In this document: piece after piece, positions 2,434 through 16,670 of the stretch
Numbering within the stretch: position 1 is the stretch's first letter
How the letters are laid out: every line of letters begins with the position of its first letter
Assembly: GCA_026000155.1 (NCBI GenBank)
Contig: BNYG01000036.1
Location: 1 to 19,272, forward strand
Reading direction: 5' to 3'
Origin: Bacteroidia bacterium
GTDB taxonomy: Bacteria; Bacteroidota; Bacteroidia; Bacteroidales; Azobacteroidaceae
Length of the DNA stretch: 19,272 nucleotides
Made by a program: the position numbers and the translations under genes
The notes under the pieces: generated by a model
Seen by the model: the letters and a program-made list of their open reading frames with translations, nothing else
Databases searched by the model: none
Told to the model about the DNA's origin: nothing

Positions 2434-2492
2434 AAAAAAAAGAAAGCGAGGATTTGCATCCCCGCTTTTAATGTTTTCACAACGGAATAATC
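2434..2492 (-). ncRNA. displaced original 3' end of the tracrRNA with its terminator
   Basis: Read on the minus strand, 2492-2460 is identical to the nexus and tail of the tracrRNA at 9327-9295. It continues into a hairpin, AAAGCGGGG (2468-2460) pairing with CCTCGCTTT (2451-2443) with loop ATGCAAAT, and then the T-rich run CTTTCTTTTTTTT (about 2446-2434). No promoter or anti-repeat is attached here. It is best explained as the original tracrRNA 3' end, cut off when the element integrated. It has a better U-tract than the copy now used at 9280-9303. Confidence 0.8.
2460..2492. repeat. left attachment repeat (33 bp)
   Basis: Begins CCCCGCTTTTAATG and ends GGAATAATC; identical to 9295-9327. Just left of it the stem arm AAAGCGAGG (2443-2451) also matches 9280-9288. 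Only the hairpin loop differs between the ends (8 nt here, 6 nt on the right). The crossover therefore lies in the 33-bp core. Confidence 0.9.
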
Positions 2493-2612
2493 ATGCCGAT
2501 TTTTGAAAGAAAATAACAAGCTAAAAAAAGCACAATAAAAGTAAGATATAACCACATATACAGCATATTTTTAGTAATTGAAATTATGCTTTTGTTTTCT
2601 GTTATCATTCTG

Positions 2613-2647
2613 TTTTTATGTTATTTTTTGTCCCCAGTTTATCCCTT
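2613..2647 (+). repeat. element-end repeat, left copy (possible integrase arm site)
   Basis: About 35 bp containing TTTTTATG, then TTTTGTCCCC, then TTATCCCTT. A close copy lies at 9192-9224 near the other end of the element, in the same orientation (TTTTTATG, TTTTGTCCCC, TTGTCCCTT). A pair of similar sites close to both att cores suggests arm-type binding sites for the integrase or for an accessory factor; this is inference. Confidence 0.5.
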
Positions 2648-2663
2648 ATTCAAAATGATGTTG

Positions 2664-2671
2664 TATCTTTG
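2664..2671 (+). promoter_or_regulatory. -7 box of the integrase promoter
   Basis: TATCTTTG matches TAnnTTTG exactly and lies 28 nt before the integrase ATG. No clear TTG is found at the -33 position, which may mean that the promoter needs help or is weak. Confidence 0.6.
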
Positions 2672-2699
2672 CATCGGGTAACAATAAAATTTCTACAAT

Positions 2700-3842
2700 A
2701 TGGGTAACATTAAGAAGCATCCAAAAGTAAAGGAACCGGTAAGAATACGCTTTAAGGACATGAAAAATGGCAATAAATCCATTTTTTTAGATACCTATTT
2801 GAATGGGACACGGCAAAAGGACTATTTGAAGCTCTATCTTATTCCAGAAAAAACGCCATTGGATAAAGAACAAAACCGCCAAACGCTTGAAATTGTAAAA
2901 ACAATCCAAAGCCAACGGATAGTAGATTTGCAAAAAGCGGAACATGGACTAAGCAATACAAGTAACAAAAAACAAAAAATGTTGCTTGTAGATTATATCC
3001 AGCACGTAGCAGGCAGCAAAAACCCACAAACAAAAAGAAGTTACGATACCTTGGTTTTATTTGTACAGGACTTTGCCCCCAATACCACCATTAAACAAGC
3101 GGATAAAAAATTTTGTTTGGATTTTATCGACTACCTAAAAAATACCGCCGGAATAAAAACCGCCCAATTATCAGCAAACACACAGGTTTGTTATTTGAGA
3201 AAATTAAAGGTAGTATTCAAAAGAGCGGTTGAAGATGAGATTATACCCAAAAACCCACTTGACACTATCAATAAGGAATTAAAACCAAAAAATACCTCAA
3301 CGGAAATCCCCTTTTTGACAATAGATGAGGTTAAAACATTGATAGGCACAAAAACGCCTTTTGATGAGATTAAAACCGCTTATTTATTCAGTTGCTACAC
3401 CGGATTAAGATTTTCAGATGTAAAGGGCTTAACATGGGAGCGTATCCGGGAAGTCAATAATGAAACGATGTTGATATACATACAGCAAAAGACTAAAAAG
3501 CAGGAATATTTACCGTTGGCAAAACCCGCCCTTGACTTGTTAGCAGGCAGAAAGCGGACAAAAGACAATGATTTGATATTTGATTTGCCCCTAAATAACA
3601 AAGCAAATGAGAGATTGAAACGTATTGTAGCGGAGGCTGGTATTGATGACAAAAAGGTAACGTTCCATACCGCCCGACATACCGCAGCCACAATGTTGTT
3701 AAGTTTGGGCGTTCCTATTGAAGTGGTAAGTAAGATATTGGGACACGCTGATATTAGAACGACACAAATTTATGCAAAGGTATTAGCCGAACAAGTAAAA
3801 ACAGGTATTCACAAGTTGGATAATCTTTTTGATAATCACTAA
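2700..3842 (+). CDS. int: tyrosine recombinase / integrase
   Basis: 380 residues, a normal length for Bacteroidota phage-type integrases. An N-terminal arm-binding-like region (about 1-85) precedes a SAM-like core-binding domain (about 92-195), and the catalytic domain follows. The catalytic set is visible: Arg237 in TGLRFSDV, a beta-hairpin Lys in the TKKQEYLPL region, His323 and Arg326 in HTARHT, His349 in LGHADIRTT, and the nucleophile Tyr358 in TTQIYAKV. It catalyses site-specific strand exchange between the element and the chromosome. The core site is expected to be the 33-bp repeat, whose left copy is 208 bp upstream. It is the first gene of the left operon, with a TAnnTTTG box before it. 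Confidence 0.95.
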   Translation: MGNIKKHPKVKEPVRIRFKDMKNGNKSIFLDTYLNGTRQKDYLKLYLIPEKTPLDKEQNRQTLEIVKTIQSQRIVDLQKAEHGLSNTSNKKQKMLLVDYIQHVAGSKNPQTKRSYDTLVLFVQDFAPNTTIKQADKKFCLDFIDYLKNTAGIKTAQLSANTQVCYLRKLKVVFKRAVEDEIIPKNPLDTINKELKPKNTSTEIPFLTIDEVKTLIGTKTPFDEIKTAYLFSCYTGLRFSDVKGLTWERIREVNNETMLIYIQQKTKKQEYLPLAKPALDLLAGRKRTKDNDLIFDLPLNNKANERLKRIVAEAGIDDKKVTFHTARHTAATMLLSLGVPIEVVSKILGHADIRTTQIYAKVLAEQVKTGIHKLDNLFDNH

Positions 3843-3853
3843 AATTTTGAGTT

Positions 3854-4111
3854 ATGGAAAACAGAAAAATAGAACGATTTGATATTGATGCGATCGCATC
3901 AATGACACAACTAAATGAATTTATAGCATCTATTAAGGCATTAGAGGATGTATGTGCAAATGTAACTGTAAATCTGCAAATTAACATTGTAGAGCATAAC
4001 GGTGGAATTGTAGGAATATCGGGAAACTATAACAGAATAAATAACGTTATCAACCAAAATAATGTAGAAGGCAATAATATCGTCGGACATGATTTTGTAG
4101 TAAATTATTAA
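3854..4111 (+). CDS. small hypothetical protein, Asn/Gly/Ile-rich C-terminus
   Basis: 85 residues, 11 nt after the integrase stop. The N-terminal half is probably helical (FIASIKALEDVCANV). The C-terminal half (about 45-85) alternates Ile, Val, Asn and Gly in a way that recalls the turns of a short beta-solenoid (GGIVGISGNYNRINNVINQN). No cysteine pair, signal peptide or membrane segment. I do not recognise the family. Its place directly behind int makes it a cargo or regulatory gene of the element. Confidence 0.6.
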   Translation: MENRKIERFDIDAIASMTQLNEFIASIKALEDVCANVTVNLQINIVEHNGGIVGISGNYNRINNVINQNNVEGNNIVGHDFVVNY

Positions 4112-4122
4112 TTAACAACGAT

Positions 4123-4386
4123 ATGGGAAATATACTAAATTTGAAATGTGGAAAGTGTGGCAATGAATGGCTGCACTATGAGGGATCGGGTTTTGATTCC
4201 ACTTATTACTATTGTGATAAGTGTGGAAAAGAAAAAACAACAAATGTAGGTGTGTCGGTTGCCGATGAGAGTTTGCAATGTGAATGTGGAGGTACTTTCC
4301 GGATCGACAACCCGGATATTATTTGCCCGGTGTGCCAAAGCAAGGATGTGGATAATGATAAAAATACAACAATGCTATGGGACTGA
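4123..4386 (+). CDS. double zinc-ribbon small protein
   Basis: 87 residues with four cysteine pairs: Cys9-x2-Cys12, Cys31-x2-Cys34, Cys53-x-Cys55 and Cys68-x2-Cys71. This makes two four-Cys zinc ribbons in tandem. Such ribbons commonly bind nucleic acid or protein; the partner is not evident. It starts 11 nt after the preceding gene and its last codons overlap the start of the next one, so it is part of the same left operon. No closer family is recognised. Confidence 0.65.
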   Translation: MGNILNLKCGKCGNEWLHYEGSGFDSTYYYCDKCGKEKTTNVGVSVADESLQCECGGTFRIDNPDIICPVCQSKDVDNDKNTTMLWD

Positions 4387-4601
4387 TAACAATGCAATTA
4401 GACGAATTTAAGAAAATGCTAAGCGACCACCTAAATAGTGATGAGTTCACAGAGCGGATAAATCAAACTATTGATGAGGTCTATAATAGCCCAGCATACA
4501 AAGCCCAGAAAGCAAAAGATGAGGCTAATTTAAAAGCAAATTGTCAATTCCAACGGTATTTAGGGGCGATAGAGTTTCAACGAGAAAACAGGATAATATG
4601 A
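4377..4601 (+). CDS. small hypothetical protein
   Basis: 74 residues, mainly charged helix (LDEFKKMLSDHLNSDEF, then KAQKAKDEANLKANCQF). The ATG at 4377 overlaps the zinc-ribbon gene by 10 nt; a second ATG at 4392 is an alternative start. The stop TGA (4599-4601) overlaps the next start as ATGA, indicating translational coupling. No family recognised. Confidence 0.5.
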   Translation: MGLITMQLDEFKKMLSDHLNSDEFTERINQTIDEVYNSPAYKAQKAKDEANLKANCQFQRYLGAIEFQRENRII

Positions 4602-4924
4602 AAACAGATTGGAATAGTGAGGGGTTTTTATCCGGCATAACGGAGGATTATTCAAATTACAGGTGGTACAAAGGGGAAAAGGATAATCCCTATACAAACG
4701 ATAAAAAACGCCCTTTGGCAGCCTCTTTTTGGTACTATGAAAGGGATTTCCATTTCAGTTATTTGGATTCAATAGGCAGCAACCAAACGCTCGCTGATGC
4801 CTATACTGAGTGGAAAGCCGGACTACTCAAAGAACACCTGCCGGGGAACATGGCAAACCCTGCCGGTGATACTACCAACTGGGACAAAGCATTTGAAACA
4901 GGAGGGATATACTATAATTATTAA
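4598..4924 (+). CDS. hypothetical protein, aromatic-rich
   Basis: 108 residues from the ATG at 4598, chosen because it forms an ATGA overlap with the previous stop; a longer start at 4541 would overlap that gene by 61 nt and adds sequence of unlikely composition. The protein is rich in Trp, Tyr and Phe (FWYYERDFHFSYLD) and ends GGIYYNY. No transmembrane segment or signal. No family recognised. It belongs to the left operon of the element. Confidence 0.55.
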   Translation: MKTDWNSEGFLSGITEDYSNYRWYKGEKDNPYTNDKKRPLAASFWYYERDFHFSYLDSIGSNQTLADAYTEWKAGLLKEHLPGNMANPAGDTTNWDKAFETGGIYYNY

Positions 4925-4935
4925 ATGTGATTATT

Positions 4936-5583
4936 ATGTGGGTAAAAGAATTTATTGATAAAATTGCTGATGGTACATTTACAAATAATGATATTATTGA
5001 ATATGCTGATCAGAAAGCAGACAAAATAGGCTTACTTTGGAATCTTTATTTTGCAGATAAGGATGTTATTGAAACTACTGGTAAACCACAGATTACAGAT
5101 GATCGCCAAATAAATAGGATTTCAAACGCTATGGACATAATTAGCTCCAGTTTCAATATTTCAATATGGAATGAATCCAACACAGCAAAGCCTCAACAAC
5201 CGGCACACTTTACCCGACAGTTTACCGCTGATGAGCAAAAAAAACTATTTGATGGATTGACAAACGGCTACTTTTTGCCCCAAGGCACCGATTACAGCCA
5301 CTTTTGTTATGTGTTTGGCGGTACTATTCCAAATGATAGAAAGCCGTTTGAGCCACTTATTTGGCAAAAATCGTTAGGGCTTTTGGCTTATATGATTGAT
5401 ATATTATTTTCAGATACGGACGGTACAAATTTATGGGAAACAACGGCAAAATGTTTTGTTTGGAAAGAAAAAGCCCCCAACAAAAACAGCATGAAAAACA
5501 CGGTAAGTAAATACAGAGAAAATGACGGGTACACAAAAAAGCCAAAAGGGTATGAATATTTAGATAATATTTTGAGAGCCTAA
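4936..5583 (+). CDS. hypothetical protein of Bacteroidota mobile elements
   Basis: 215 residues from the ATG at 4936; a GTG at 4927 would add three residues. Soluble and without recognised catalytic motifs. The middle contains DGLTNGYFLPQGTDYSHFCYVFGG, split here only by wording as positions about 106-129, and the C-terminus has KNTVSKYRENDG and LDNILRA. The style (a central F/Y/G-rich block followed by a helical tail) is common among unnamed proteins carried by Bacteroidota integrative elements, but I cannot name a family. It is the last gene before the terminator at 5606. Confidence 0.6.
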   Translation: MWVKEFIDKIADGTFTNNDIIEYADQKADKIGLLWNLYFADKDVIETTGKPQITDDRQINRISNAMDIISSSFNISIWNESNTAKPQQPAHFTRQFTADEQKKLFDGLTNGYFLPQGTDYSHFCYVFGGTIPNDRKPFEPLIWQKSLGLLAYMIDILFSDTDGTNLWETTAKCFVWKEKAPNKNSMKNTVSKYRENDGYTKKPKGYEYLDNILRA

Positions 5584-5605
5584 AAAACTTACACCGACTT
5601 ACAGT

Positions 5606-5638
5606 AAGGGTTACAGTAACACATTGTAACCCTTTTTT
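5606..5638 (+). terminator. terminator separating the two operons of the element
   Basis: AAGGGTTACA (5606-5615) pairs with TGTAACCCTT (5625-5634), loop 9 nt, followed by TTTT. It closes the integrase operon 23 nt after the last stop. Confidence 0.85.
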
Positions 5639-5653
5639 CTTTCCTACCTATCC

Positions 5654-5661
5654 TATTTTTG
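5654..5661 (+). promoter_or_regulatory. -7 box of the second element operon
   Basis: TATTTTTG fits TAnnTTTG, directly after the terminator and about 110 nt before the first gene of the right operon. The leader between them contains GAGTGCAACC (about 5681) and the inverted form GTTGCACC (about 5724), which might be an operator for the HTH protein encoded next. Confidence 0.5.
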
Positions 5662-5772
5662 CACTTGCAAACCAACAAAGCGAGTGCAACCCTTTGAATG
5701 TTTGCAACGGTACGGAGGCTGGAGTGTTGCACCTACCCGCCAAAGGCTATAACCCATAATCAAATTAGCGTT

Positions 5773-6075
5773 ATGGATGAGGTATTAAGAGCGTTGCAAG
5801 AAATAAAGCAACTGACAATATTAGGGGCAAAACAAGCCCTAACAATGAGCGATGCAAGCCTATTGACAGGATTAAGCAAGTCCCATTTGTACAAACTCGT
5901 TTGCAGAAAGGCAATACCGTACTACAAAAGTGATGGCGGGAAGCTGACCTACTTTGACAAAAACGAAGTAACAGCGTGGCAATTGCAGCACAGAGTAAAA
6001 ACCGCTTCAGAACTTGAAACAGAGGCGGCAAACTACCTTGTAACCGGAAAAGCAGGGAAAGGGGGCAAAAAATGA
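5773..6075 (+). CDS. helix-turn-helix DNA-binding protein, excisionase-like
   Basis: 100 residues from the ATG at 5773 (MDEVLRALQEIKQL). Residues about 24-70 form a MerR/excisionase-type winged HTH: LTMSDASLLTGLSKSHLYKL, then the wing YYKSDGGKLTYFDKNEV and a helix AWQLQHRV. Such proteins (HTH_17 family) act as recombination directionality factors or as repressors in Bacteroidota integrative elements. A longer frame back to 5698 exists but would read through the leader. Its stop overlaps the next start as ATGA. It could direct excision together with Int or regulate its own operon; sequence alone does not decide. Confidence 0.8.
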   Translation: MDEVLRALQEIKQLTILGAKQALTMSDASLLTGLSKSHLYKLVCRKAIPYYKSDGGKLTYFDKNEVTAWQLQHRVKTASELETEAANYLVTGKAGKGGKK

Positions 6076-6611
6076 ATCCTACAATTAATTGCTACCTAAA
6101 ACTGGAGCGTATCCTGAATAAGGACAAAAAAACGGCTCGATACGATTGTACAGCGTGGGCGGGGTATTATCCCCCATTGGAAGCCCTGAAAAATGCCAAG
6201 GGGCAACTGTTTTTCTATTTGATGAGAAGCCGTAACGACAAAAGTACAACCCCGGAACACTATTTGCAAGCATCCAAAGGAAGCATGAATTTAACCGGAT
6301 TGTTTCATTATTGGGAAGATGGCAAATTAAGCGGCTTTTGTTCCGGTTATCCCTCAACAAAAAAGGTATTTGATAACAAGGACAAAACGGAAAACCCTTT
6401 TTATGAGAATCGGAACGATGCTTTTTTATTCATTATCCATTGGGATAAGGACAAAGCGGAAAAGGTGCCGACACCCACAGCAATAGAAATGATTGTACTG
6501 AAAGATGCAAAAGTTTTGATTGATGCCTATCGGAAGCAATTAATGTTAGATGGCTTTGATGAGGAATTGAAACAGCTAAGAGCGCAGGCAAAAGCAATCT
6601 ATGAGTATTGA
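6072..6611 (+). CDS. hypothetical protein of the replication operon
   Basis: 179 residues; its ATG overlaps the previous stop by 4 nt, so the two are translationally coupled. The N-terminal part reads NCYLKLERILNKDKKTARYDCTA and then FFYLMRSRND, with a helical C-terminus (KDAKVLIDAYRKQLM, ELKQLRAQAKAIYEY). No motif that I can assign. The position before a rolling-circle-type Rep suggests a helper in replication or copy control, which is inference from location only. Confidence 0.6.
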   Translation: MNPTINCYLKLERILNKDKKTARYDCTAWAGYYPPLEALKNAKGQLFFYLMRSRNDKSTTPEHYLQASKGSMNLTGLFHYWEDGKLSGFCSGYPSTKKVFDNKDKTENPFYENRNDAFLFIIHWDKDKAEKVPTPTAIEMIVLKDAKVLIDAYRKQLMLDGFDEELKQLRAQAKAIYEY

Positions 6612-6616
6612 ATGTT

Positions 6617-6730
6617 TTCCCAGATATTGGGAATAAAAACACACTTTCGAGTTTACCGCAATCATTCAAAAAATGGAGGTCAAAAGGGATGCTATAATAA
6701 TAACTTGTAAGTATTCCCAAAAACAGGGAA
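6617..6730. repeat. paired TTCCC/GGGAA inverted repeats upstream of rep
   Basis: Two small inverted repeats share the same arms: TTCCCA-N5-TGGGAA at 6617-6633 and TTCCC-N7-GGGAA at 6714-6730. The second ends 3 nt before the rep start. They may be binding sites for the Rep protein (origin or autoregulation), or simple hairpins around a 120-nt leader. Confidence 0.4.
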
Positions 6731-6741
6731 ATTATGTATGA
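6673..6741 (+). CDS. possible 22-residue leader peptide of rep
   Basis: An ATG at 6673, preceded by an A-rich run, opens a 22-codon frame (MEVKRDAIIITCKY...) whose stop at 6739-6741 overlaps the start of rep at 6734. Such an arrangement can couple rep translation to that of a leader. It may equally be chance. Confidence 0.2.
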   Translation: MEVKRDAIIITCKYSQKQGNYV

Positions 6742-7678
6742 CAAATTAAGAATGTGGAATGATAGATACAAAGTTGGTGGCGACTTTACTAAAATTGACA
6801 ACTATTTGGACACTGTAAAAACACAAACAGACCAACGGACGGGCGAGGTTAAAATGTTTGGTAGTTTGCATGGTTTGAATGTGGCAATACATGAAAGTGG
6901 GCTATCCATTACCGGAAGTTTGCCAAAATTTCTATATCCTGATAATATTTACCCATTGAATAGGGAAAGTACCAAAGAAGCATTTGAAAAATTGAGCGAC
7001 TGCCTACATTTTAAGGTTGAGGAGGCTAAAATTATCAGCGTGGAATTTGGAACACATTTTTTGATGAGTAAACCGGTTCCGGCATATTTGGATATGTTGA
7101 GGGAAACAACCTACCTAAAACGATGTCAGTTTGAAGATAGTACGCTTTATTATCGGTCAAAGGGGAAACAGCAGCCAAAAACGATATGCTTCTATGACAA
7201 AGTAAAAGAGGCTGAAAAGAGGGGCGTTAAAATCCCGGATGGTTTGGAAAATAGCAATCTATTGAGGTATGAGATGAGATACAAAGGGCGGTTGCCCCAG
7301 CAACTAAAAGAGGATGAAATTACAGGCAAAACGCTATCGGATGAGGCTTTTTACCGTAAAATGATAGGGCTATACTCCAATGCTTATTTTGAGATAGACA
7401 AAGTTAAAACATTAAAAACAAACATTATGAGTAAAATTAAGACTGTTTCAGATGCTTTTGATGTGTTGATGGCACGTCTTATCAATCAGGGCGACCAGTC
7501 CCAAATAACGGCTTTTTTGGATGAGCTAAAGCAAAGCAATGTATTTGATGATCCAAAGTATTACACCCGCTTAAAAAAGAAGCTTTCAGACATTGCCGGA
7601 AAAGACGACATAACGGAATCAAACAGCCTTATCAAAGAGCTGGATAACGAGATTAAAAAAATATCAGCATATTGCTGA
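6734..7678 (+). CDS. phage/plasmid replication initiator, gene II/X family
   Basis: 314 residues. The pattern matches the replication proteins related to filamentous-phage gene II/X (Phage_CRI): a SLHGLNVAIHESGLSITGSL strand block at about 44-63, KFLYPDNIYPL at 65-75, EAFEKLSDCLHF at 82-93, ISVEFGTHFLMSKPVPAYLD at 101-120, ICFYDKVKEA at 151-160 and NLLRYEMRYKGRL at 175-187. In this family the protein nicks one strand at the origin and stays joined to DNA by a tyrosine; Tyr139, Tyr140 and Tyr154 are candidates. The C-terminal third is helical and less conserved. It implies that the element replicates by a rolling-circle mode when circular. Start chosen at 6734; an alternative ATG lies out of frame at 6738. 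Confidence 0.8.
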   Translation: MYDKLRMWNDRYKVGGDFTKIDNYLDTVKTQTDQRTGEVKMFGSLHGLNVAIHESGLSITGSLPKFLYPDNIYPLNRESTKEAFEKLSDCLHFKVEEAKIISVEFGTHFLMSKPVPAYLDMLRETTYLKRCQFEDSTLYYRSKGKQQPKTICFYDKVKEAEKRGVKIPDGLENSNLLRYEMRYKGRLPQQLKEDEITGKTLSDEAFYRKMIGLYSNAYFEIDKVKTLKTNIMSKIKTVSDAFDVLMARLINQGDQSQITAFLDELKQSNVFDDPKYYTRLKKKLSDIAGKDDITESNSLIKELDNEIKKISAYC

Positions 7679-7704
7679 AAATCAAGCAATTAAATAAAAA
7701 AGTC

Positions 7705-7911
7705 ATGAAAAGAGAAGACAGAATTAAAGAATTAGAAAATGAGATTGAGAAACTAAAGAACACCACCGATGAGGAGTTGGCTATTCAAGAAGCCTCTGAA
7801 TCACTATTGGAGAGAATAACAGCCAAAGAAACACCAGTAGAGAAAAAAGAAACCAAGGTAGGGGATTGTGCCCCCGGTTGTGCAAATTCAACTCAAAGAG
7901 GCGGTTTTTAA
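7705..7911 (+). CDS. small coiled-coil protein
   Basis: 68 residues from the ATG at 7705. The first 50 residues form a leucine/isoleucine heptad helix (REDRIKELENEIEKLKN), ending in a short tail with two Cys (DCAPGCANSTQRGGF). An in-frame TTG at 7672 overlapping the rep stop would add 11 residues. Probably translated with rep and possibly an oligomerising partner; no family recognised. Confidence 0.55.
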   Translation: MKREDRIKELENEIEKLKNTTDEELAIQEASESLLERITAKETPVEKKETKVGDCAPGCANSTQRGGF

Positions 7912-7941
7912 CAAATGTATCACAATTAAACAACACAAGAA

Positions 7942-8601
7942 ATGGAAAGTAACATTTTAGTATTTAGGGATGTGCCAGCGATTGATGAGGATGTAAGAGG
8001 GTATGCCATAGCACAAAAACAGCTACAAAGAGTTTTAGGATACTTGAAAAGTGCAGGGGTAGAGGCTGATTATGACCTATTAAAGGACATTGTAAAACAA
8101 GGCAGTAAGATTGTTGAGGTTTTGAATACAAAAGCCTCCAGCGAGAAACAAGGCATGCCAATAAGTATGCAAAATATCATTGACAATGACACACAAACGG
8201 TGTACAATGAAATAAAAAGGCTGGGGGAAGATGCCAACAGAGCTACAATAAACAGCTTTACCTATGCTATTGATTTGGATTTATTCAACATATCAAATGG
8301 GGATGTTTCTTTGAAACCGGATAGTAGGCAAATGATTGAAGACAAATATTCTGTTTACATTGACAGTCCGGACAGGGAAGATGTTTACAAAAAGGCTCAA
8401 AATGTGATAAAGGCTATTTCAGAACTGCAAAAAAGCATTGGCAAAGCAGATAAAAAGGGATTGGCGGGAAAGTTATTGCCTATTTTACCCGCTTCATATT
8501 CCGGTGCCAGAATACTAAATGTAGATGCCGATGGCGGGGTAGAGATTGTCGGGGAATCCTTTGGATTTATCAAATTAAGTGTGTCTATCAAACACACTTA
8601 A
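7942..8601 (+). CDS. hypothetical protein of the replication operon
   Basis: 219 residues, soluble. The first 70 residues are helical (YAIAQKQLQRVLGYLKSAG, LLKDIVKQGSKIVEVL), the middle holds ANRATINSFTYAIDLDLF, and the C-terminus is strand-rich with RILNVDADGGVEIVGES. No catalytic motif recognised. It lies 30 nt after the coiled-coil gene and 27 nt before the next, consistent with one operon. Confidence 0.6.
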   Translation: MESNILVFRDVPAIDEDVRGYAIAQKQLQRVLGYLKSAGVEADYDLLKDIVKQGSKIVEVLNTKASSEKQGMPISMQNIIDNDTQTVYNEIKRLGEDANRATINSFTYAIDLDLFNISNGDVSLKPDSRQMIEDKYSVYIDSPDREDVYKKAQNVIKAISELQKSIGKADKKGLAGKLLPILPASYSGARILNVDADGGVEIVGESFGFIKLSVSIKHT

Positions 8602-8628
8602 AATTAAAAACGAAAGGGAAACGGGGGT

Positions 8629-9006
8629 ATGGCTAAATTTAGGAAAGGAACGACCATAGGAAAAGAGCATAGATTTACGGCTGATTATCAGCCGTATAAG
8701 AATGGAAGAAAGAAATCTTTGTATCATTCAATCATTGCAAAAACAGGTTGCAAAATAAGAAAAAATGAATTTTTTGATGTAATCCGGTACTTAATGGAGC
8801 AATCTATACCAACATTGGAGGGTATTTTGAAAGAGGTAAAGGAAAACCCAAACACAAAAACCCCTATTTGGATATGTTCAATTATCGAAGCAATGTTGAA
8901 AGATTGTCGCTATGGTAGATTGATAGTAATCAATAGTTTGTTTGATAGGTTGTTTGGAAAACCGGAAAGCAAATTTGAGCCAAACAAAAGGAAAAGGGGT
9001 AGGTAA
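8629..9006 (+). CDS. small basic hypothetical protein
   Basis: 125 residues with a basic N-terminus (MAKFRKGTTIGKEHRF) and a very basic end (EPNKRKRGR). The stretch RLIVINSLFDRLFGKPESKF at about 97-116 resembles the end of phage packaging-associated proteins of the DUF5681/small-terminase kind, which end in a LLDRxxGKP-like motif. The likeness is short and could be chance. DNA or RNA binding is likely from the charge. It is the last gene of the element. Confidence 0.5.
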   Translation: MAKFRKGTTIGKEHRFTADYQPYKNGRKKSLYHSIIAKTGCKIRKNEFFDVIRYLMEQSIPTLEGILKEVKENPNTKTPIWICSIIEAMLKDCRYGRLIVINSLFDRLFGKPESKFEPNKRKRGR

Positions 9007-9115
9007 CTACTCCTTTTCTATTATCGGGATATTCCGCCACAAAAAATATGTTTTACAACATATTAGCCTCAACGATGAAGTGACTTAATCAAAATAATCA
9101 TTATCTTTGCTCTAC

Positions 9116-9197
9116 AATAACCCGCTAAAAAGGTAGTTTTCTATCCATTTTGTTACCCGTTTGTTACCCACAAAGGAATACAGGCGGGTTATTTTTA
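9116..9197 (+). ncRNA. candidate small RNA at the element's right end
   Basis: The TATCTTTG box at 9102-9109 would start transcription near 9116. The RNA would open with TAACCCGC (9118-9125), which pairs with GCGGGTTA (9184-9191), followed by TTTTT. An inner hairpin GGTAG/CTATCC lies near 9132-9146. Promoter, closing stem and U-run together fit a short structured RNA of about 80 nt. There is no clear -33 box. Confidence 0.4.
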
Positions 9198-9224
9198 TGT
9201 CGTTTTGTCCCCAATTTGTCCCTT
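9192..9224 (+). repeat. element-end repeat, right copy
   Basis: Direct copy of 2613-2647 with a few changes: TTTTTATG, TTTTGTCCCC and TTGTCCCTT occur in the same order and spacing within 2 nt. It lies 70 bp inside the right attachment core. Confidence 0.5.
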
Positions 9225-9272
9225 TTCCATATTTTTAGCTGGTTGAAAAAGCAATCTATATAATTGATATAC

Positions 9273-9352
9273 AAATAATAAAGCGAGGCTAACGCCCCGC
9301 TTTTAATGTTTTCACAACGGAATAATCCTTATTGTGAATTGCTTCAAAAATT
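9273..9352 (-). ncRNA. tracrRNA: tracrRNA of the type II-C CRISPR system (short form)
   Basis: Read on the minus strand. The box TATCTTTG (9366-9359) is a TAnnTTTG promoter with a start near 9352. The RNA opens with the anti-repeat (9355-9331: CAATTTTTGAAGC then AATTCACAAT), which pairs with the first 27 nt of the CRISPR repeat with one G-U pair, one bulged U and one missing U. The nexus follows, ATAAGGATTATTCCGTTGTG (9332-9313), resembling the AUAAGG...CCG nexus of other II-C tracrRNAs, and then the terminator hairpin AAAGCGGGG (9303-9295) / CCTCGCTTT (9288-9280) with a poor U-run (ATTATTTG). It lies upstream of and divergent from cas9. The part 9327-9295 is the attachment repeat of the mobile element, so the last part of this RNA is encoded by element DNA. 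Confidence 0.85.
9295..9327. repeat. right attachment repeat (33 bp), inside the tracrRNA
   Basis: Identical to 2460-2492. It covers the tracrRNA from the nexus to the first arm of the terminator stem. The next arm outwards (9280-9288) is also identical to 2443-2451, and only the loop between them differs. Confidence 0.9.
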
Positions 9353-9402
9353 GTAGGACAAAGATATGTAAAAATATTTTGAAAAAACATTTTTACATAA
9401 AT

Positions 9403-9437
9403 AAATCTTTATTTTATACAAAAAAGCAATTCGCAAC
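9403..9437 (-). repeat. degenerate CRISPR repeat next to the tracrRNA
   Basis: On the minus strand it starts GTTGCGAATTGCTTT, against GTTGTGAATTGCTTT in the array repeats (14 of 15). It then loses the CAAAAAA block, keeps TTGTAT, and drifts. It is single, not part of an array, and faces the same way as the array repeats. Confidence 0.75.
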
Positions 9438-9591
9438 ACCTACTATACACAATAAAACACTTGTGTTTATAAAAAATAAAATAGGGATTTATAGTTGGCT
9501 ATAAACAAGCTGGGATTGGACTCCCACCTAAAAATTATTTTAATAAATATTCTTCTTTTCTTGAGTATTTTATTGTGTACAGTAGGTATTG
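9434..9591. repeat. 24-bp inverted repeat spanning the guide segment
   Basis: 9434-9457 and 9568-9591 are inverted copies with 22 of 24 matches. The left arm covers the guide and the first 4 nt of the degenerate repeat. The right arm runs into ATTGTGGTTG (9588-9597), which faintly resembles a repeat start in the opposite sense. Between the arms lie three short hairpins: AAACAC/GTGTTT (9455-9468), TTTATAG/CTATAAA (9488-9505) and TGGGA/TCCCA (9511-9526). Confidence 0.75.
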
Positions 9592-9756: not shown

Positions 9757-9787
9757 TTGTATAGTAGGTGAATTTCTACTATCTTTG
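9757..9787 (+). promoter_or_regulatory. cas9 operon promoter with guide-matched site
   Basis: TTG (9757-9759), 20 nt, TATCTTTG (9780-9787): a full Bacteroidota promoter, start near 9793 and 36 nt of leader before the cas9 ATG. Between the boxes are a palindrome TAGTAG-N8-CTACTA (9762-9781) and the 12-nt match (9758-9769) to the guide of the long tracrRNA. Cas9 bound here would cover both boxes. Confidence 0.75.
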
Positions 9788-9828: not shown

Positions 9829-12800
9829 ATGAAGAAAATATTAGGACTAGATTTAGGTACAACTTCTATCGGCTGGGCATTGGTAAACGAAGCGGAAACC
9901 GCTGAAGAAAAATCGTCAATTATCAAACTTGGCGTAAGAGTTAATCCTTTGACCGTTGATGAACAGCAGAATTTCGAGAAAGGGAAAAGCATTACCACCA
10001 ATGCAGATAGAACCCTCAAACGCAGTATGCGCCGTAATTTGCAACGCTATAAACTTCGTCGTGAAAATTTGATTGAAATATTAAAAGAAAATGGTTTTAT
10101 TTCCGATGAGACAATCTTATCGGAAAACGGCAATCGAACTACTTTTGAAACTTATCGTCTGCGGGCAAAGGCTGCTACAGAAGAAATTTCGTTGGAAGAG
10201 TTTGCCCGTGTATTGTTGATGATAAACAAAAAGCGCGGATATAAAAGCAGTCGCAAAGCCAAAGGAACGGAAGACGGTGCATTGATTGATGGAATGGAAG
10301 TTGCCAAAAAACTGTACGAAGAAAATATTACGCCCGGACAATATTGTCTGCAACTTTTGCAGGCAGGCAAAAAATATCTTCCTGACTTTTACCGTTCCGA
10401 TTTGCAAAACGAGTTTGATAGAATTTGGGTAAAACAAAACGAGTTCTATTCCTTTTTGACGGATGAATTAAAAGAAGAATTGCGAGGAAAAAATGAAAAA
10501 GCAACTTGGGTTATTGCCGCATCGCATTTTATTTGGACAGAGACGAAGAAAATTTGGAACAGCGATGAGGGCAAAAATGAAGAAGTTATCAAAGAATGTA
10601 AACTTGTAGGCATAAAAAGGGAAACAAAACAAGCTGAACAAAAATTGGAAAATTTTCAGTGGCGAGCAAAAGCCTTGTCTGGAAAAATGCACCCCGAAGA
10701 GTTGATTATAGTTTTACAAAAAATCAATGGACAAATAAGTGGTTCAAGCGGTTATCTCGGCGCAATCAGCGACAGAAGCAAAGAACTTTATTTCAATAAA
10801 CAAACTGTTGGACAATATCAAATGGCTGTTTTGGAAGAAAATCCCAATGCAAGTTTGCGAAATATGGTGTTTTACCGCCAGGATTATTTAGATGAGTTTA
10901 ATGTAATTTGGGAAAAACAAGCAGAGTTTCATAAAGAACTTACCAATGAATTGAAAAATGAAATTCGCGATGTTGTCATTTTTTACCAAAGACGCTTGAA
11001 AAGCCAAAAAGGACTGATTAGTTTTTGTGAATTTGAAAGCCGACAAATTGAGGTGGAAATTGACGGAAAGAAAAAGATAAAAACCACAGGTAGTCGGGTT
11101 ATTCCGCGTTCTTCGCCATTGTTTCAAGAGTTTAAAATTTGGCAGATATTGAATAATATTGAGGTAACAGTTAGCGGCAAAAAAGGAAAAAGGAAGAAAC
11201 AAAAAGACAATTCGCCTTTGCTTTTTGATGATGTGGAAGAAATTGACCGGCTGGAACTCAACGGCAGACGATTTTTAGACCAGGACGAAAAGGAAATTTT
11301 GGCAAAAGAACTGTTTGTTCGTGATAAATTATCCAAATCCGATGCGTTGAAATTATTGTTTGAAAATCCACAGGAATTGGATTTGAATTTCAAAACCCTT
11401 GACGGTAACAAAACGGGTTTTGCCATGTTTCAAGCATACAGCAAAATCATTGAAATATCCGGACACGAGCCGATTGATTTCAAAAAATCAGCTGACGACA
11501 TTATTGAATATGTAAAGGAAATTTTTACGGCGTTCGATTGGAATACGGACATTTTACAATTCGATTCCGATACCGAATTAGACAAGCAGCCTTATTATAA
11601 ACTTTGGCATTTGCTCTATTCTTTTGAAGGCGACAATACGCCAACCGGAAACGGCAATTTAATTCAGAAAATTACCGAATGTTGCGGTTTTGAAAAAGAA
11701 TACGCTACAATTTTGGCAAACGTTACCTTTCAAGACGATTACGGCAGTTTATCAGCAAAGGCTATTCGTAAAATTTTGCCTCATTTGAAAGAAGGTAACG
11801 GTTACGATGTTGCTTGCGTTTATGCAGGTTACGAAAAACATTCAAAATCGTCATTGACCAAAGAAGAAATCGAAAACAAGGTTTTGAAAGACCGTTTAGA
11901 TATTCTTCCCAAAAACAGTTTGCGTAATCCCGTTGCGGAAAAGATTTTGAATCAAATGGTTAATGTAATCAACACGATTATTGACACTTACGGAAAACCG
12001 GACGAAATTCGTGTGGAATTGGCGCGTGAATTGAAGAAAAATGCCAAAGAGCGCGAAGAACTTACAAAATCGGTTGCCGAAAATACTAAAGCGCACGAGG
12101 AATACAAGAAAATCCTTTCGCAGGCACCCTTCAATCTTTCGCACATTAGCCGCACCGACATTGTGCGGTATAAACTTTGGCTCGAACTGAAAGCAACAGG
12201 TTTCAAAACGCTGTATTCCAACACGTACATTTCGCCTGCCAAACTTTTTACAGGAGAGTTTGATATTGAGCACATTATACCGCAAGCGCGATTGTTTGAC
12301 GACAGTTTTTCAAACAAAACGCTCGAAAAACGCGATGTAAATATTGCAAAAGGAAATCGCACAGCTTATGATTTTATGAAGGAAGAGTACGGCGAAGATG
12401 GTTTGCAAAATTATTTAAATCGCGTTGAAATGCTATATAATACCAAAAGCAGAGAAAATGCCGATGAGGATGTAAAATCAGCAGGCACCATTTCCAAATC
12501 GAAATACAATAAACTGAAAATGGAAGAAAAAGATATTCCTGATGGTTTCATTGATAGAGATTTACGAAATACACAGTACATTGCTAAAAAAGCGTTGGAA
12601 ATGTTGAACGAGATTGTAAGATTTGTAGTTCCAACCACAGGCGGATTAACAGATAGATTACGTGAAGATTGGCAGTTGGTAGATTTGATGAAAGAATTGA
12701 ATTGGGATAAATACAACAAACTTGGTTTAACCGAAATTGTTGAAGATACTGATTATAATGGGAATATATACAGATTTAGCCGTATTAAACCTGATGTTTG

Positions 12801-14370
12801 GACAAAGCGAAACGACCACCGCCACCACGCAATGGACGCTCTGACTGTGGCGTTTACTAAACGCAGTATTATTCAATATCTCAACAATTTAAGTGCAAGA
12901 ATACCGAAAAAATGTTATTGCGGTTACGAAAAATACAGATTTGATACGGAAGAATATAAGGATTGGACTTGTCCCGATTGTGGCAGACAATATTTTGCAA
13001 AAAAAGATACAAATGCAGTTTATGGAATTGAACGAAACGACCTTTACAGAAATTCCAAAGGAAAATTGCTCATTAAACCGCCGTTTGAATTGAACGAATT
13101 TCGCGCCGAAGCCAAAAAGCATTTGGAAAATACACTGATTTCCATTAAGGCAAAAAGTAAAGTAGTTACAACCAATATCAACACTACAAAAAAGAATGGT
13201 GGAACAAATAAAAAAACACAACAAACGCCACGCGGACAGTTACATATGGAAACTGTCTATGGCAGGGTAAAACGCTATGTTACCAAAGAGGAAAATATTG
13301 GGGCTACTTTTGATGTTGAGAAAATTGCAAGCGTTACCAAACCTATTTATCGAGAGGCACTGTTGGCACGACTTGCAACATTTGATAATAATCCCAAGAA
13401 AGCATTTACAGGAAGTAATGCATTAGACAAAAAGCCGATATGGCTAAACGAAAGCCATACAGAACAAGTGCCGAAACGAATAAAAACCGTTACGCTCGAA
13501 ACCATTTATACCATTCGCAAACCCATTTCTGCTGATATTACTATTGAAGATGTAATTGACAAAGGCATTCAGGAGATTTTGAAAAAACGCCTTACTGAAT
13601 ATGGAGGAAAAGCCAAAGAAGCATTCTCTAATATTGGCGAAAATCCTATTTTTAATAAAAATGGCAAAGAAATAAAGAGTGTTACTGTGGCTGCTGTAAG
13701 CAATGTGGTTTCTTTGCATGACAAAAAAGATAAAGATGGGAAGCCTATTTTAGATGAAAACGGCAAAAAACAATCTGTTGATTTTGTACAAACCCGTAAT
13801 AATCACCATGCCGAAATTTTCAAAGTGCCTGTTTTAGATAGGGATGGTAATCTCAAAACGGATGAACAGGGCAATGCGGTTTACGAATTAAAAGGCAACA
13901 TTGTTTCATTTTTTGAATCGTTGGCAAGAGTAAATGCAGGCGTGCCGATTATTGACAAAGGATACAAAGATAAAGACGGTATTAAAGTGGATGGAAGTGA
14001 ATTTTTGTTCAGCATTAAACAAAATGAATATTTTGTGCTACCGCAATATGCGAAAAAAGAACTCGTTAATGAAGAAACAGGCGAAATTACAGGTGAAGAA
14101 GAAGTTGTTATTTTCAATCCCGAGGACATTGATTTGCTTAACTCAGACAATTATTCTTTGATAAGTCCTAATTTGTATCGTATTCAAAAGATGAAGCAAA
14201 CAGATTCAGGTGGAACAATTTTTTTTCGTCACCATTTGGAAACCGATGTGCAGGAACGCAAAGAATTGAAAGACATTGCCTATACAAGCAAGGTAATTGC
14301 TAATTTGAAAGACATTGTAAAAGTTCGAGTAAATCATATTGGACAAATTGTTTCCGTTGGAGAATATTAA
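9829..14370 (+). CDS. cas9: Cas9 endonuclease, type II-C, with zinc-ribbon insertion
   Basis: 1513 residues, long for a II-C Cas9. It cuts double-stranded DNA guided by crRNA:tracrRNA. RuvC-I has Asp8 in LGLDLGTTSIGWAL; the Arg-rich bridge helix starts at Arg61 (RTLKRSMRRNLQRYKLRR); RuvC-II has Glu730 in IRVELARE; the HNH motif FDIEHIIPQARLFDDSF has His815 with Asn838; RuvC-III has His1000 and Asp1003 in DHRHHAMDALTVAF. All catalytic residues are present, so the enzyme should be active. After RuvC-III lies a four-Cys ribbon (Cys1029, Cys1031, Cys1048, Cys1051) that I do not expect in this position in related Bacteroidota Cas9 proteins. The C-terminal part (about 1080-1513) holds the PAM-interacting region, with PRGQLHMETVYGRV near its start. 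Its TAA directly precedes the rhuM ATG. Confidence 0.97.
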   Translation: MKKILGLDLGTTSIGWALVNEAETAEEKSSIIKLGVRVNPLTVDEQQNFEKGKSITTNADRTLKRSMRRNLQRYKLRRENLIEILKENGFISDETILSENGNRTTFETYRLRAKAATEEISLEEFARVLLMINKKRGYKSSRKAKGTEDGALIDGMEVAKKLYEENITPGQYCLQLLQAGKKYLPDFYRSDLQNEFDRIWVKQNEFYSFLTDELKEELRGKNEKATWVIAASHFIWTETKKIWNSDEGKNEEVIKECKLVGIKRETKQAEQKLENFQWRAKALSGKMHPEELIIVLQKINGQISGSSGYLGAISDRSKELYFNKQTVGQYQMAVLEENPNASLRNMVFYRQDYLDEFNVIWEKQAEFHKELTNELKNEIRDVVIFYQRRLKSQKGLISFCEFESRQIEVEIDGKKKIKTTGSRVIPRSSPLFQEFKIWQILNNIEVTVSGKKGKRKKQKDNSPLLFDDVEEIDRLELNGRRFLDQDEKEILAKELFVRDKLSKSDALKLLFENPQELDLNFKTLDGNKTGFAMFQAYSKIIEISGHEPIDFKKSADDIIEYVKEIFTAFDWNTDILQFDSDTELDKQPYYKLWHLLYSFEGDNTPTGNGNLIQKITECCGFEKEYATILANVTFQDDYGSLSAKAIRKILPHLKEGNGYDVACVYAGYEKHSKSSLTKEEIENKVLKDRLDILPKNSLRNPVAEKILNQMVNVINTIIDTYGKPDEIRVELARELKKNAKEREELTKSVAENTKAHEEYKKILSQAPFNLSHISRTDIVRYKLWLELKATGFKTLYSNTYISPAKLFTGEFDIEHIIPQARLFDDSFSNKTLEKRDVNIAKGNRTAYDFMKEEYGEDGLQNYLNRVEMLYNTKSRENADEDVKSAGTISKSKYNKLKMEEKDIPDGFIDRDLRNTQYIAKKALEMLNEIVRFVVPTTGGLTDRLREDWQLVDLMKELNWDKYNKLGLTEIVEDTDYNGNIYRFSRIKPDVWTKRNDHRHHAMDALTVAFTKRSIIQYLNNLSARIPKKCYCGYEKYRFDTEEYKDWTCPDCGRQYFAKKDTNAVYGIERNDLYRNSKGKLLIKPPFELNEFRAEAKKHLENTLISIKAKSKVVTTNINTTKKNGGTNKKTQQTPRGQLHMETVYGRVKRYVTKEENIGATFDVEKIASVTKPIYREALLARLATFDNNPKKAFTGSNALDKKPIWLNESHTEQVPKRIKTVTLETIYTIRKPISADITIEDVIDKGIQEILKKRLTEYGGKAKEAFSNIGENPIFNKNGKEIKSVTVAAVSNVVSLHDKKDKDGKPILDENGKKQSVDFVQTRNNHHAEIFKVPVLDRDGNLKTDEQGNAVYELKGNIVSFFESLARVNAGVPIIDKGYKDKDGIKVDGSEFLFSIKQNEYFVLPQYAKKELVNEETGEITGEEEVVIFNPEDIDLLNSDNYSLISPNLYRIQKMKQTDSGGTIFFRHHLETDVQERKELKDIAYTSKVIANLKDIVKVRVNHIGQIVSVGEY

Positions 14371-15387
14371 ATGAAATTGCTTATGGAAAATACAAATAAT
14401 AATCTTCCCACCCCCACCGACTTCCTGCTCTACAAAGATGCCAACGGTCAAGTGAAAATAGAAATTTATCTTTTCAATGAAACGATTTGGCTAACACAAG
14501 ATAAAATCGCTCAATTATTTGCTGTTCAGCGTCCTGCTGTTACCAAACATTTGAAGAATATCTTTGAAAGCGGCGAATTACAAGAAAATTCAGTTAGTTC
14601 CATTTTGGAACTAACTGCCTCTGATGGCAAAACGTATCAAACGAAAGTTTATAATCTTGATGCTATCCTTTCAGTTGGTTATCGTGTAAACAGCATTCAG
14701 GCAACGCATTTCCGCATTTGGGCAAACAGCGTTTTAAAAGAATACCTTATCAAGGGTTTTGCCATGAACGATGAACGATTGAAAAATCCGCAGAAACTAT
14801 TTGGTCAAGATTATTTTGAAGAACAACTTGCCCGTATCCGCGATATTCGCAGCAGCGAACGCCGTTTCTATCAGAAAATTACCGATATTTATTTGCAATG
14901 CAGTGCCGATTATGAGCCGAACAGCGATATTACCAAAAAGTTTTTTGCTACCGTGCAAAATAAACTGCATTGGGCTATCACAGGACAAACCGCCGCGGAA
15001 ATTGTTGCAGCAAGAGCCGATGCCGAAAAAGCAAACATGGGACTTACTTCGTGGAAAAATGCGCCCAAAGGAATGATTCGCAAGCCCGATGTAAGTGTTG
15101 CCAAAAATTATTTGAACGAAACGGAGTTAGACCACCTCAATCGCATCGTGTCGATGTATTTGGATTATGCTGAAAATCAGGCAAAAAAAGGACAAGTAAT
15201 GTATATGCAGGATTGGGTTAAAAAATTAGATGCTTTTCTTCAATTCAATGAAGAGGTGATACTTACAGACAACGGACGTGTTAGTCATGAAGTGGCAAAA
15301 GCTTTAGCAGAAAAAGAATTTGAAAAATTCCATGCAAAGCAGTTACAGGATTATGAATCTGATTTTGATAAATTATTGGCATTATGA
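14371..15387 (+). CDS. rhuM: RhuM-family protein inside the cas operon
   Basis: 338 residues, full length for the Virulence_RhuM family. An N-terminal winged-helix-like part (about 36-70: LFNETIWLTQDKIAQLFAVQ, then VTKHLKNIFESGEL) precedes the family signature YNLDAILSVGYRVNSIQ and FRIWANSVLKEYLIKGF (about 94-130), followed by helices to the C-terminus. RhuM was named from Salmonella pathogenicity island 3; its biochemical role is unknown, and the genes are frequent inside type I restriction operons and phage islands. Here the ATG at 14371 abuts the cas9 stop (a second ATG at 14383, MENTNNN, is an equally likely start), and the stop overlaps the cas1 ATG as ATGA. It must be co-transcribed and probably translationally coupled with cas9 and cas1. 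Likely DNA-binding; intact. Confidence 0.9.
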   Translation: MKLLMENTNNNLPTPTDFLLYKDANGQVKIEIYLFNETIWLTQDKIAQLFAVQRPAVTKHLKNIFESGELQENSVSSILELTASDGKTYQTKVYNLDAILSVGYRVNSIQATHFRIWANSVLKEYLIKGFAMNDERLKNPQKLFGQDYFEEQLARIRDIRSSERRFYQKITDIYLQCSADYEPNSDITKKFFATVQNKLHWAITGQTAAEIVAARADAEKANMGLTSWKNAPKGMIRKPDVSVAKNYLNETELDHLNRIVSMYLDYAENQAKKGQVMYMQDWVKKLDAFLQFNEEVILTDNGRVSHEVAKALAEKEFEKFHAKQLQDYESDFDKLLAL

Positions 15388-16328
15388 TTAAGAAAACTCT
15401 CTATTTCGAAAACCCCGCGTATCTCAGCCTAAAGAACCAGCAACTGCTTATCAAGCTGCCGGAGGTTGAGAAAAGTGATTCTGTGCCCGAATCATTCAAA
15501 GAAAGCAGTGTGAAAACCATTCCGATAGAAGATATTGGTATTGTCATTTTAGATAACAAGCAAATAACTCTTACTCACGGACTGATAGAAGCATTGCTGG
15601 CAAATAATTGTGCGTTAATCACTTGTGGTAGCAATCGGATGCCGGTGGGTTTGCAGCTTCCGTTGGATGGAAATACCTTGCAAAGCGAGCGTTTTCAGGC
15701 GCAAATTGATGCATCACTTCCATTAAAAAAGCAGTTGTGGCAACAAACCATTCAGGCGAAAATAAGTAATCAGGCGCATGTTTTAAAAACTACCCGGAAT
15801 GCAGTTGTGGGCAATATGCTGAAATGGGTCAATGATGTAAAGAGCGGCGATAGCGAAAATTTGGAAGGGCGTGCAGCAGCGTATTATTGGAAAAATCTTT
15901 TTCCTGATATTGAAGGTTTTACACGAGGTCGCGAAGGTGTTCCTCCGAACAATCTGTTGAATTATGGTTATGCGATTTTGAGAGCGGTCATTGCGCGTGC
16001 TTTGGTGGCAAGCGGATTATTGCCGACTTTTGGGATACATCATCATAATCGCTACAATGCTTATTGTTTGGCGGATGATATCATGGAACCTTACCGTCCT
16101 TTTGTCGATAGATTAGTGGTGGAAATCGTAGAGACGTATAATTATACGTCTTTACCAATCGAATTATCCAAAGAAATAAAGACGAAATTGCTTTCCATTC
16201 CGGTGTTGGATGTTGTTATCAATGAACAACGAAGTCCTTTGATGATTGCGGCCGGTCAGACAACCGCTTCATTATCTAAATGTTATCTGGGGGAAATGCG
16301 GAAAATCGCTTATCCTTCATTCCCGTAA
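15384..16328 (+). CDS. cas1: Cas1 integrase, type II
   Basis: 314 residues, usual for type II Cas1. With Cas2 it integrates new spacers at the leader end of the array. The metal-binding residues are visible: Glu161 in NLEGRAAAYYW, the His cluster 219-221 in FGIHHHNRYNAYCLADD, and Glu235 in DIMEPYRPFVD. The N-terminal beta domain starts KTLYFENPAYLSLKNQQLL. The start overlaps the rhuM stop by 4 nt; cas2 follows after 9 nt. No csn2 or cas4 is present, which with the Cas9 type assigns subtype II-C. Confidence 0.97.
   Translation: MIKKTLYFENPAYLSLKNQQLLIKLPEVEKSDSVPESFKESSVKTIPIEDIGIVILDNKQITLTHGLIEALLANNCALITCGSNRMPVGLQLPLDGNTLQSERFQAQIDASLPLKKQLWQQTIQAKISNQAHVLKTTRNAVVGNMLKWVNDVKSGDSENLEGRAAAYYWKNLFPDIEGFTRGREGVPPNNLLNYGYAILRAVIARALVASGLLPTFGIHHHNRYNAYCLADDIMEPYRPFVDRLVVEIVETYNYTSLPIELSKEIKTKLLSIPVLDVVINEQRSPLMIAAGQTTASLSKCYLGEMRKIAYPSFP

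Positions 16329-16670
<342 letters not shown>

What the first reader, a model, noticed from the sequence alone, without database searches (positions are those of the whole stretch)
2434..9352. The tracrRNA gene serves as the attachment site of an integrative element
Seen: a perfect 33-bp direct repeat (2460-2492, 9295-9327) bounds a 6.8-kb segment that starts with a tyrosine integrase. On the minus strand the right copy is the tracrRNA from nexus to terminator stem, continuous with the anti-repeat at 9355-9331. The left copy runs into the same terminator stem with a strong U-run but has no anti-repeat or promoter. Known: many tyrosine-recombinase elements enter tRNA or tmRNA 3' ends and carry a copy that restores the gene. 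Inference: here the target is the tracrRNA of a CRISPR-Cas9 locus. I know of no described element using this site. It would give the element a conserved structured target in II-C hosts and physical control over the end of an RNA needed for immunity against it.
Basis: partly seen in the sequence, partly recalled or inferred. Interest (0 to 1): 0.95.

Follow-up and report, generated by a model that had tools for sequence, protein, structure and literature searches.

The report
Mobile element lodged in tracrRNA gene
In three Bacteroidota genomes, related mobile DNA elements sit at the same point inside the gene for tracrRNA, the RNA that Cas9 immunity needs, and each brings a replacement end that completes the gene sequence; the element's own integrase most likely picks this site and the rebuilt RNA is predicted to work, but neither has been tested.

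Summary
A perfect 33-bp repeat (2460-2492, 9295-9327) bounds a 6,835-bp unit with a tyrosine integrase at one end. The right copy lies in a complete tracrRNA gene; the left copy is that gene's displaced 3' part. The empty site exists: in relative G023 (Cas1 96% identical) one continuous tracrRNA is identical over 84 bases to the joined window flanks. A nearly identical element (96-99% DNA) sits at the same point in G009, beside a very different Cas9, and a diverged one in G433 (its two ends on separate contigs). A ~60% identical integrase in G031 also borders a tracrRNA 3' part. The exchange maps to CGTTGTGAAAACAT, between nexus and terminator. Each of the three elements supplies its own terminator hairpin, with a weaker T-run in the window's case. 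Against strict specificity: a related integrase (L005, 81%) is at a non-tracrRNA site, and five more distant ones (37-49%) have no tracrRNA in their loci. This is tRNA-style integration at a new kind of target, an immune RNA gene; five paper searches showed no description of it. Excision, integrase activity and tracrRNA function are untested.

The parts
2460..2492 (-). left att core: displaced 3' part of the tracrRNA gene (end of nexus, linker, 5' arm of terminator), no anti-repeat or promoter
2434..2468 (-). original host terminator hairpin (2468-2443) and T-run of the tracrRNA, now cut off from it
   Evidence: same terminator in the uninterrupted G023 tracrRNA
2627..2651 (+). two TTTGTCCC/TTTATCCC motifs 11 bp apart, candidate arm-type integrase sites (left)
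   Evidence: function inferred
2700..3842 (+). tyrosine integrase, 380 aa
   Evidence: PF00589, PF13102, PF17293
3854..5583 (+). small ORFs of unknown function (85, 87, 74, 127, 218 aa); no padloc match
5698..6075 (+). HTH_17 / excisionase-family protein, candidate directionality factor
   Evidence: PF12728, TIGR01764 over cut-off
6072..6611 (+). ORF of unknown function, 179 aa
6734..7678 (+). replication-initiator-like protein
   Evidence: PF05144 Phage_CRI
7672..9006 (+). ORFs of unknown function (79, 219, 125 aa)
9204..9228 (+). two TTTGTCCC motifs 11 bp apart, candidate arm-type integrase sites (right)
   Evidence: function inferred
9280..9303 (-). terminator hairpin brought by the element, now the end of the tracrRNA; tail ATTATTTGTA
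9295..9327 (-). right att core, inside the complete tracrRNA gene
9314..9319 (-). start of the inferred strand-exchange interval CGTTGTGAAAACAT (9319 down to 9306)
   Evidence: inferred from attL/attR differences
9330..9355 (-). anti-repeat of the tracrRNA
   Evidence: duplex with the CRISPR repeat
9359..9366 (-). TATCTTTG, promoter -7-like box of the tracrRNA (Bacteroidota motif from recall)
   Evidence: sequence
9829..14370 (+). cas9, 1513 aa
   Evidence: PF18541, PF13395; TIGR01865 over cut-off
15384..16670 (+). cas1 and cas2
   Evidence: PF01867, PF09827
18767..19133 (-). CRISPR array, five repeats with 77-bp period

Best explanation
The 6.8-kb segment is an integrated mobile element that lies inside the tracrRNA gene of a Cas9 locus, and its own tyrosine integrase likely put it there by recombining a tracrRNA-like attP with the matching stretch of the gene. 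Exchange would take place within CGTTGTGAAAACAT, the linker between nexus and terminator. The promoter, anti-repeat and nexus then stay with the host, while the element supplies the rest: linker end, terminator hairpin and tail. The host's own 3' part is pushed to the far end of the element. The tracrRNA sequence is thus complete again and is predicted to be transcribed, to pair with crRNA and to fold as before, so Cas9 immunity would be kept. The linker is so conserved among Bacteroidota tracrRNAs that one integrase can serve loci with Cas9 proteins that share little sequence. Shown: anatomy, empty site, repeated occurrence at the same point. Inferred: integrase action, excision, function of the rebuilt RNA.
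For: Empty site: joined flanks equal G023 over 84 bases; uninterrupted tracrRNAs also in G010, G011, G036. Repeat use: G009 carries a 96-99% identical element DNA between a core with its own host terminator and a complete tracrRNA, on one contig, beside a 1441-aa Cas9 that aligns to the window's only in short pieces (23-40%; cas1-cas2 DNA 74.6%). G433 has an 87% identical integrase beside the displaced core (contig L003) and a complete tracrRNA with a homologous element end beside a third Cas9 (contig L047). G031 has a ~60% identical integrase directly beside a displaced core. All four integrases sit at the same end, in the same orientation, and for the three nearest 163-218 bp from the core. 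Each of the three right ends forms a terminator hairpin (-17.2, -12.8, -13.3 kcal/mol). Candidate arm-type motifs with equal spacing at both ends.
Against: L005, 81% identical integrase, lies beside a non-tracrRNA sequence although its genome has an intact tracrRNA. Five more distant homologues (L006, L010, L011, L012, L208; 37-49%) have no such core in the loci read. G031's second end was not found. G433's two ends are on different contigs, so their link is assumed. In G009 the integrase gene is split by other mobile DNA. No circle, no reads, no RNA data.
Confidence: 0.93

Rival explanations
1. The integrase recognises only a short core sequence, and tracrRNA genes are merely the commonest place where that sequence occurs; there is no selection for the immune RNA as such.
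For: L005 at a non-tracrRNA site with a partly similar sequence (GAAAACA shared). The core is present in 115 of 393 genomes of the order, so it is an abundant landing site.
Against: In 4 of the 5 homologues of 59% identity or more whose flank was seen, the neighbour is a tracrRNA part. The elements carry a full terminator hairpin downstream of the exchange point, in three versions with different loops, as expected if gene restoration is selected.
Confidence: 0.3
2. The insertion does not simply preserve the tracrRNA but changes it: the element's weaker tail lets transcripts run on or lowers the amount of tracrRNA, which would dampen Cas9 immunity while the element is resident.
For: T in the 10 bases after the hairpin: window 6 (ATTATTTGTA) against 8 in the lost host end (CTTTTTTTTG); G009 6 against 7; G433 5 against 6.
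Against: The differences in G009 and G433 are one T each, and uninterrupted G023 and G010 have 5 and 4 T by the same count, so weak tails are also native. Hairpins are intact. No spacer among 140 read matches the window's element beyond 13 bases, so no conflict with the array is visible.
Confidence: 0.2
3. The repeat comes from assembly error or from homologous recombination between tracrRNA copies, not from site-specific integration.
For: The window is a contig of a draft genome of 282 contigs; repeats can misassemble.
Against: The same arrangement is found in G009 on one contig and in G433, with different flanking DNA; an integrase is at the end in each case.
Confidence: 0.02

Closest known systems
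Genomic islands in tRNA and tmRNA genes (Islander, PMC4383910; abstract and introduction read)
   Same: Tyrosine integrase on board, attP carries the 3' part of an RNA gene, integration splits the gene and restores it, displaced fragment marks the far end.
   Different: Target is a tracrRNA, a gene of adaptive immunity found only in type II CRISPR hosts, not a tRNA or tmRNA.
Tn7-like elements next to the SRP-RNA gene (PMC6360697; passages read)
   Same: A mobile element that uses a non-tRNA small RNA gene as landing site.
   Different: Transposase-based, inserted downstream of the RNA gene with a short target duplication; no rebuilding of the RNA.
Bacteroides mobilizable elements that enter tRNA 3' ends (NBU1 type; recalled, not looked up)
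   Same: Small Bacteroidota elements with a tyrosine integrase.
   Different: Here no mobilisation protein was recognised and the target is tracrRNA.
RNA anti-CRISPRs of phages (PMC10651486; passages read)
   Same: Mobile DNA that carries a piece of CRISPR RNA sequence.
   Different: Racrs mimic CRISPR repeats as decoys; this element carries a tracrRNA 3' end that completes the host gene.

Membership tests
Integrative element in an RNA gene (Islander type) | tyrosine integrase encoded inside the element | tested here: met
   PF00589 etc.
Integrative element in an RNA gene (Islander type) | RNA gene at one end, displaced fragment of it at the other, same orientation | tested here: met
   repeated in G009 and, across two contigs, G433
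Integrative element in an RNA gene (Islander type) | uninterrupted site in relatives | tested here: met
   G023, G010
Integrative element in an RNA gene (Islander type) | target is a tRNA or tmRNA gene | tested here: not met
   ARAGORN finds none in the window; target is the tracrRNA
Integrative element in an RNA gene (Islander type) | excision and circle | not testable with these tools
   no reads held
Integrative conjugative or mobilizable element | relaxase or type IV secretion genes | tested here: inconclusive
   no such match in Pfam, PHROGs or NCBIfam for the ORFs scanned; PF05144 protein could act on DNA ends
Temperate phage | capsid, terminase or portal genes | tested here: not met
   no such match in Pfam or PHROGs for the ORFs scanned; integrase not found in viral contigs
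Type II-C CRISPR-Cas9 locus (host of the element) | cas9, cas1, cas2, array and tracrRNA, with neither csn2 nor cas4 | tested here: met
   no csn2 or cas4 match in the ORFs scanned, though not every window ORF was scanned; subtype rule recalled

The most novel reading that the evidence does not exclude
A lineage of mobile elements homes on the immune system itself: its integrase reads the universal linker of Bacteroidota tracrRNAs, so the element enters CRISPR-Cas9 hosts whatever their Cas9, makes itself part of the immune RNA gene, and by supplying the RNA's end becomes able to set how much or what form of tracrRNA the cell makes. Losing the element wrongly would cost the host its immunity, which would tie the two together.
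Probability: 0.2. Interest if true: 0.93.

Novelty: new variant of a known kind. Interest (0 to 1): 0.8.

Why it matters
Integration into tRNA and tmRNA genes is textbook; use of the RNA cofactor of Cas9 as landing site was not found in print. It would mean that an immune gene can serve as a shared docking site for mobile DNA, that a foreign element writes the last part of an RNA that Cas9 binds, and that CRISPR carriage itself decides which elements a cell can host. It gives a ready marker (core plus displaced core) to screen CRISPR genomes for further elements, and a possible integrase for targeting tracrRNA loci in laboratory work.

Tried and rejected
Assembly artefact or recombination between repeats: rejected because of G009 on a single contig and G433.

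A functional tracrRNA elsewhere in the genome: one search of the own genome found only the two known places; the genome is 88% complete, so a distant or missing copy cannot be fully excluded.

Element kept out by spacers: 140 spacers from seven arrays gave no match to the window's element longer than 13 bases.

Element in viruses or plasmids: integrase not found in viral contigs; replication protein not found in the plasmid or phage collections. Integrase at E<=1e-90 in 1 of 393 genomes of the order (the window's own) and 2 of 395 of the class (own and G517, 48%, no core in its locus): the lineage is narrow in named genomes, although 2514 proteins with E<=1e-60 exist in the large protein set (best 120 listed, no context).

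Other integrases at the same target: among 108 core-like sites read in other genomes of the order, two lack the 5' part (G152:C27, G406:C44) but show no integrase in the loci read, and G333 has a complete tracrRNA with a tyrosine recombinase 350 bp away on the promoter side. A second element in G152 is possible, not shown. My integrase profile missed the weak recombinase of L103, so this scan is not exhaustive.

Integrase tree: the four tracrRNA-bordering integrases and L005 fall in one supported group of 26 rows; for the other 21 the neighbourhood is unknown, so one origin of the preference was not shown.
Full report
What is there. A 33-bp exact direct repeat, 2460-2492 and 9295-9327, bounds a unit of 6,835 bp; about 5e-11 such pairs are expected by chance. 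The unit begins with a tyrosine integrase (2700-3842) and holds an HTH/excisionase-family protein and a PF05144 replication-initiator-like protein; most other ORFs have no known function and none of ten tested matches a defence family. To the right lie the tracrRNA gene and cas9, a RhuM-family gene, cas1, cas2 and a CRISPR array. The tracrRNA anti-repeat pairs with the CRISPR repeat far better than shuffles (-27.6 against a mean of -7.7 kcal/mol, 200 shuffles).

Empty site. Joining the window's flanks in a script predicts the uninterrupted gene. In G023, whose Cas1 is 96% identical, a continuous tracrRNA is identical to this join over 84 bases, 61 before and 23 after it. In G010 the right probe matches 58 of 58 and the left probe 48 of 50 bases at adjoining positions. 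G011 and G036 also have uninterrupted genes.

Same site elsewhere. In G009 (its contig has the length of, and shares the integrase with, BNTW01000020.1, Bacteroidia bacterium MS502-62) the element's DNA is 96.2% (3683 bp), 99.1% (938 bp) and 99.4% (1219 bp) identical to the window's. It lies between a displaced core with a different host terminator (31682-31713) and a complete tracrRNA (7933-7997) on one contig. Its Cas9 aligns to the window's only in short pieces (23-40% identity), and cas1-cas2 DNA is 74.6% identical. The integrase gene there is split between residues 323 and 327 by about 16 kb of other DNA with two further recombinases. In G433 (Bacteroidales bacterium OttesenSCG-928-B11) the left end with an 87% identical integrase is on one contig, and a complete tracrRNA with a homologous element end, beside a third kind of Cas9, on another. 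In G031 a ~60% identical integrase directly borders a displaced core next to a uvrC-like gene; its other end was not found.

Exchange point. In G009 the left end turns to host sequence after ...AAAACAT; in G031 the element sequence ends before CGTTGTG. Together the exchange lies within CGTTGTGAAAACAT (inference; one base in that stretch differs between the two G009 ends). The identical stretch is 33 bp in the window, 14 plus 7 bp around one mismatch in G009 and 48 bp in G433. So promoter, anti-repeat and nexus are the host's, terminator and tail the element's. Each of the three element ends folds into a terminator hairpin with a different loop. The window's tail is poorer in T than the lost one (6 against 8 of 10), G009 6 against 7, G433 5 against 6; but uninterrupted G023 and G010 have 5 and 4, so a change of termination is only a possibility.

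How common. The 22-base core (up to 2 mismatches) is in 115 of 393 genomes of the order, 119 sites by my count of the table; the reversed control pattern gave none in the rows shown. I read the flanks of 108 of the 117 sites outside the window's genome: 105 have the CACAATAAGG anti-repeat end just before the core (up to 2 mismatches; one of them, G411, keeps only its last bases), two lack it and one is a chance match. In the family (45 genomes, up to 3 mismatches) 17 genomes matched; in G024 and G027 these are chance matches. Of the other 15, 13 have a complete tracrRNA, G006 is cut by a contig end and G031 shows only the displaced part. Three of these 15 are occupied: window, G009, G031. The same 45 genomes hold 287 PF00589 matches (sum of the table; list of places truncated). 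In the loci fetched, recombinases within 400 bp of a core belong to the window, G009, G433, G031 and G333.

Against. L005 (Tannerellaceae, 81% identical but cut by the contig end) has a non-tracrRNA flank with GAAAACA in common, although its genome (G434) has an intact tracrRNA. L006, L010, L011, L012 and L208 (37-49%) have no such core in their loci. In total 4 of 10 homologues with a flank (the window's among them) border a tracrRNA, 4 of 5 at 59% or more.

Mechanism and novelty. It works like islands in tRNA genes, whose attP carries the gene fragment that restores the target (PMC4383910, abstract and introduction). It differs in the target. Paper searches for tracrRNA with attachment site, integration or island terms (in 54 and 55 only the first 20 rows were listed) showed no such element; passages of PMC6360697 and PMC4771134 concern other things, and the review PMC11656645, of which I saw passages, mentions tracrRNA only in a legend and an abbreviation list. 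Open-licence papers only were searched.

Noticed in passing
window 9437-9464 (-) and 9758-9770 (+): Upstream of the tracrRNA, on its strand, a repeat-like TTGCGAATTGCTTT is preceded by a guide-like stretch whose last 13 bases (TGTATAGTAGGTG) recur about 60 bp before the cas9 start on the other strand. G108 (L131) has the same plan with a 13-base match just upstream of its cas9 start. This resembles the tracr-L single guide that represses cas genes in type II-A (PMC11417352, passages), here in a II-C-like setting; 2 of 115 loci scanned.
   Followed up: partly
window 9434-9461 and 9564-9591: 28-nt inverted repeat (89%) between tracrRNA and cas9; the first arm overlaps the guide-like stretch, so the second may be another target of it.
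   Followed up: no
L102 8170-8300 (virus contig of 53 kb with terminase and portal-like genes): GTTGTGAATT...AATTCGCAATAAGG, two small hairpins, then the conserved tracrRNA core and a terminator: a phage-borne RNA that looks like a repeat fused to a tracrRNA; no Cas9 seen in the stretch read.
   Followed up: partly
L103 1000-1090 (virus contig of 61 kb): Complete tracrRNA with promoter-like box about 200 bp from a recombinase-like ORF (1297-2505), no Cas9 match to the two Cas9 queries in 15 kb read.
   Followed up: partly
L205 (G333), tracrRNA near 10227: Complete tracrRNA with a tyrosine recombinase about 350 bp away on the promoter side and no match to the two Cas9 queries in the 18 kb read.
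   Followed up: partly
L106 (G152:C27) 2358-2379 and L105 (G152:C4) 191-212: Displaced core with terminator on one contig and a complete tracrRNA close to the end of another in the same genome: possibly a second, unrelated element at the same target.
   Followed up: partly
L022 (G010) just after 11738; L003 before 287: GTGTGCCG..., the start typical of group II introns (recalled), directly after the tracrRNA terminator; in L003 a reverse-transcriptase-like ORF lies beside it. The terminator may be a target for such introns.
   Followed up: no
window 14371-15387: RhuM-family gene (PF13310) between cas9 and cas1; G009 has one at the same place (42.8% identical).
   Followed up: no
L140 (G406:C44) 1538-1559: Core and terminator without anti-repeat, about 10 bp from the start of an ORF that looks like Cas3: perhaps a relic of a lost Cas9 locus.
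   Followed up: no
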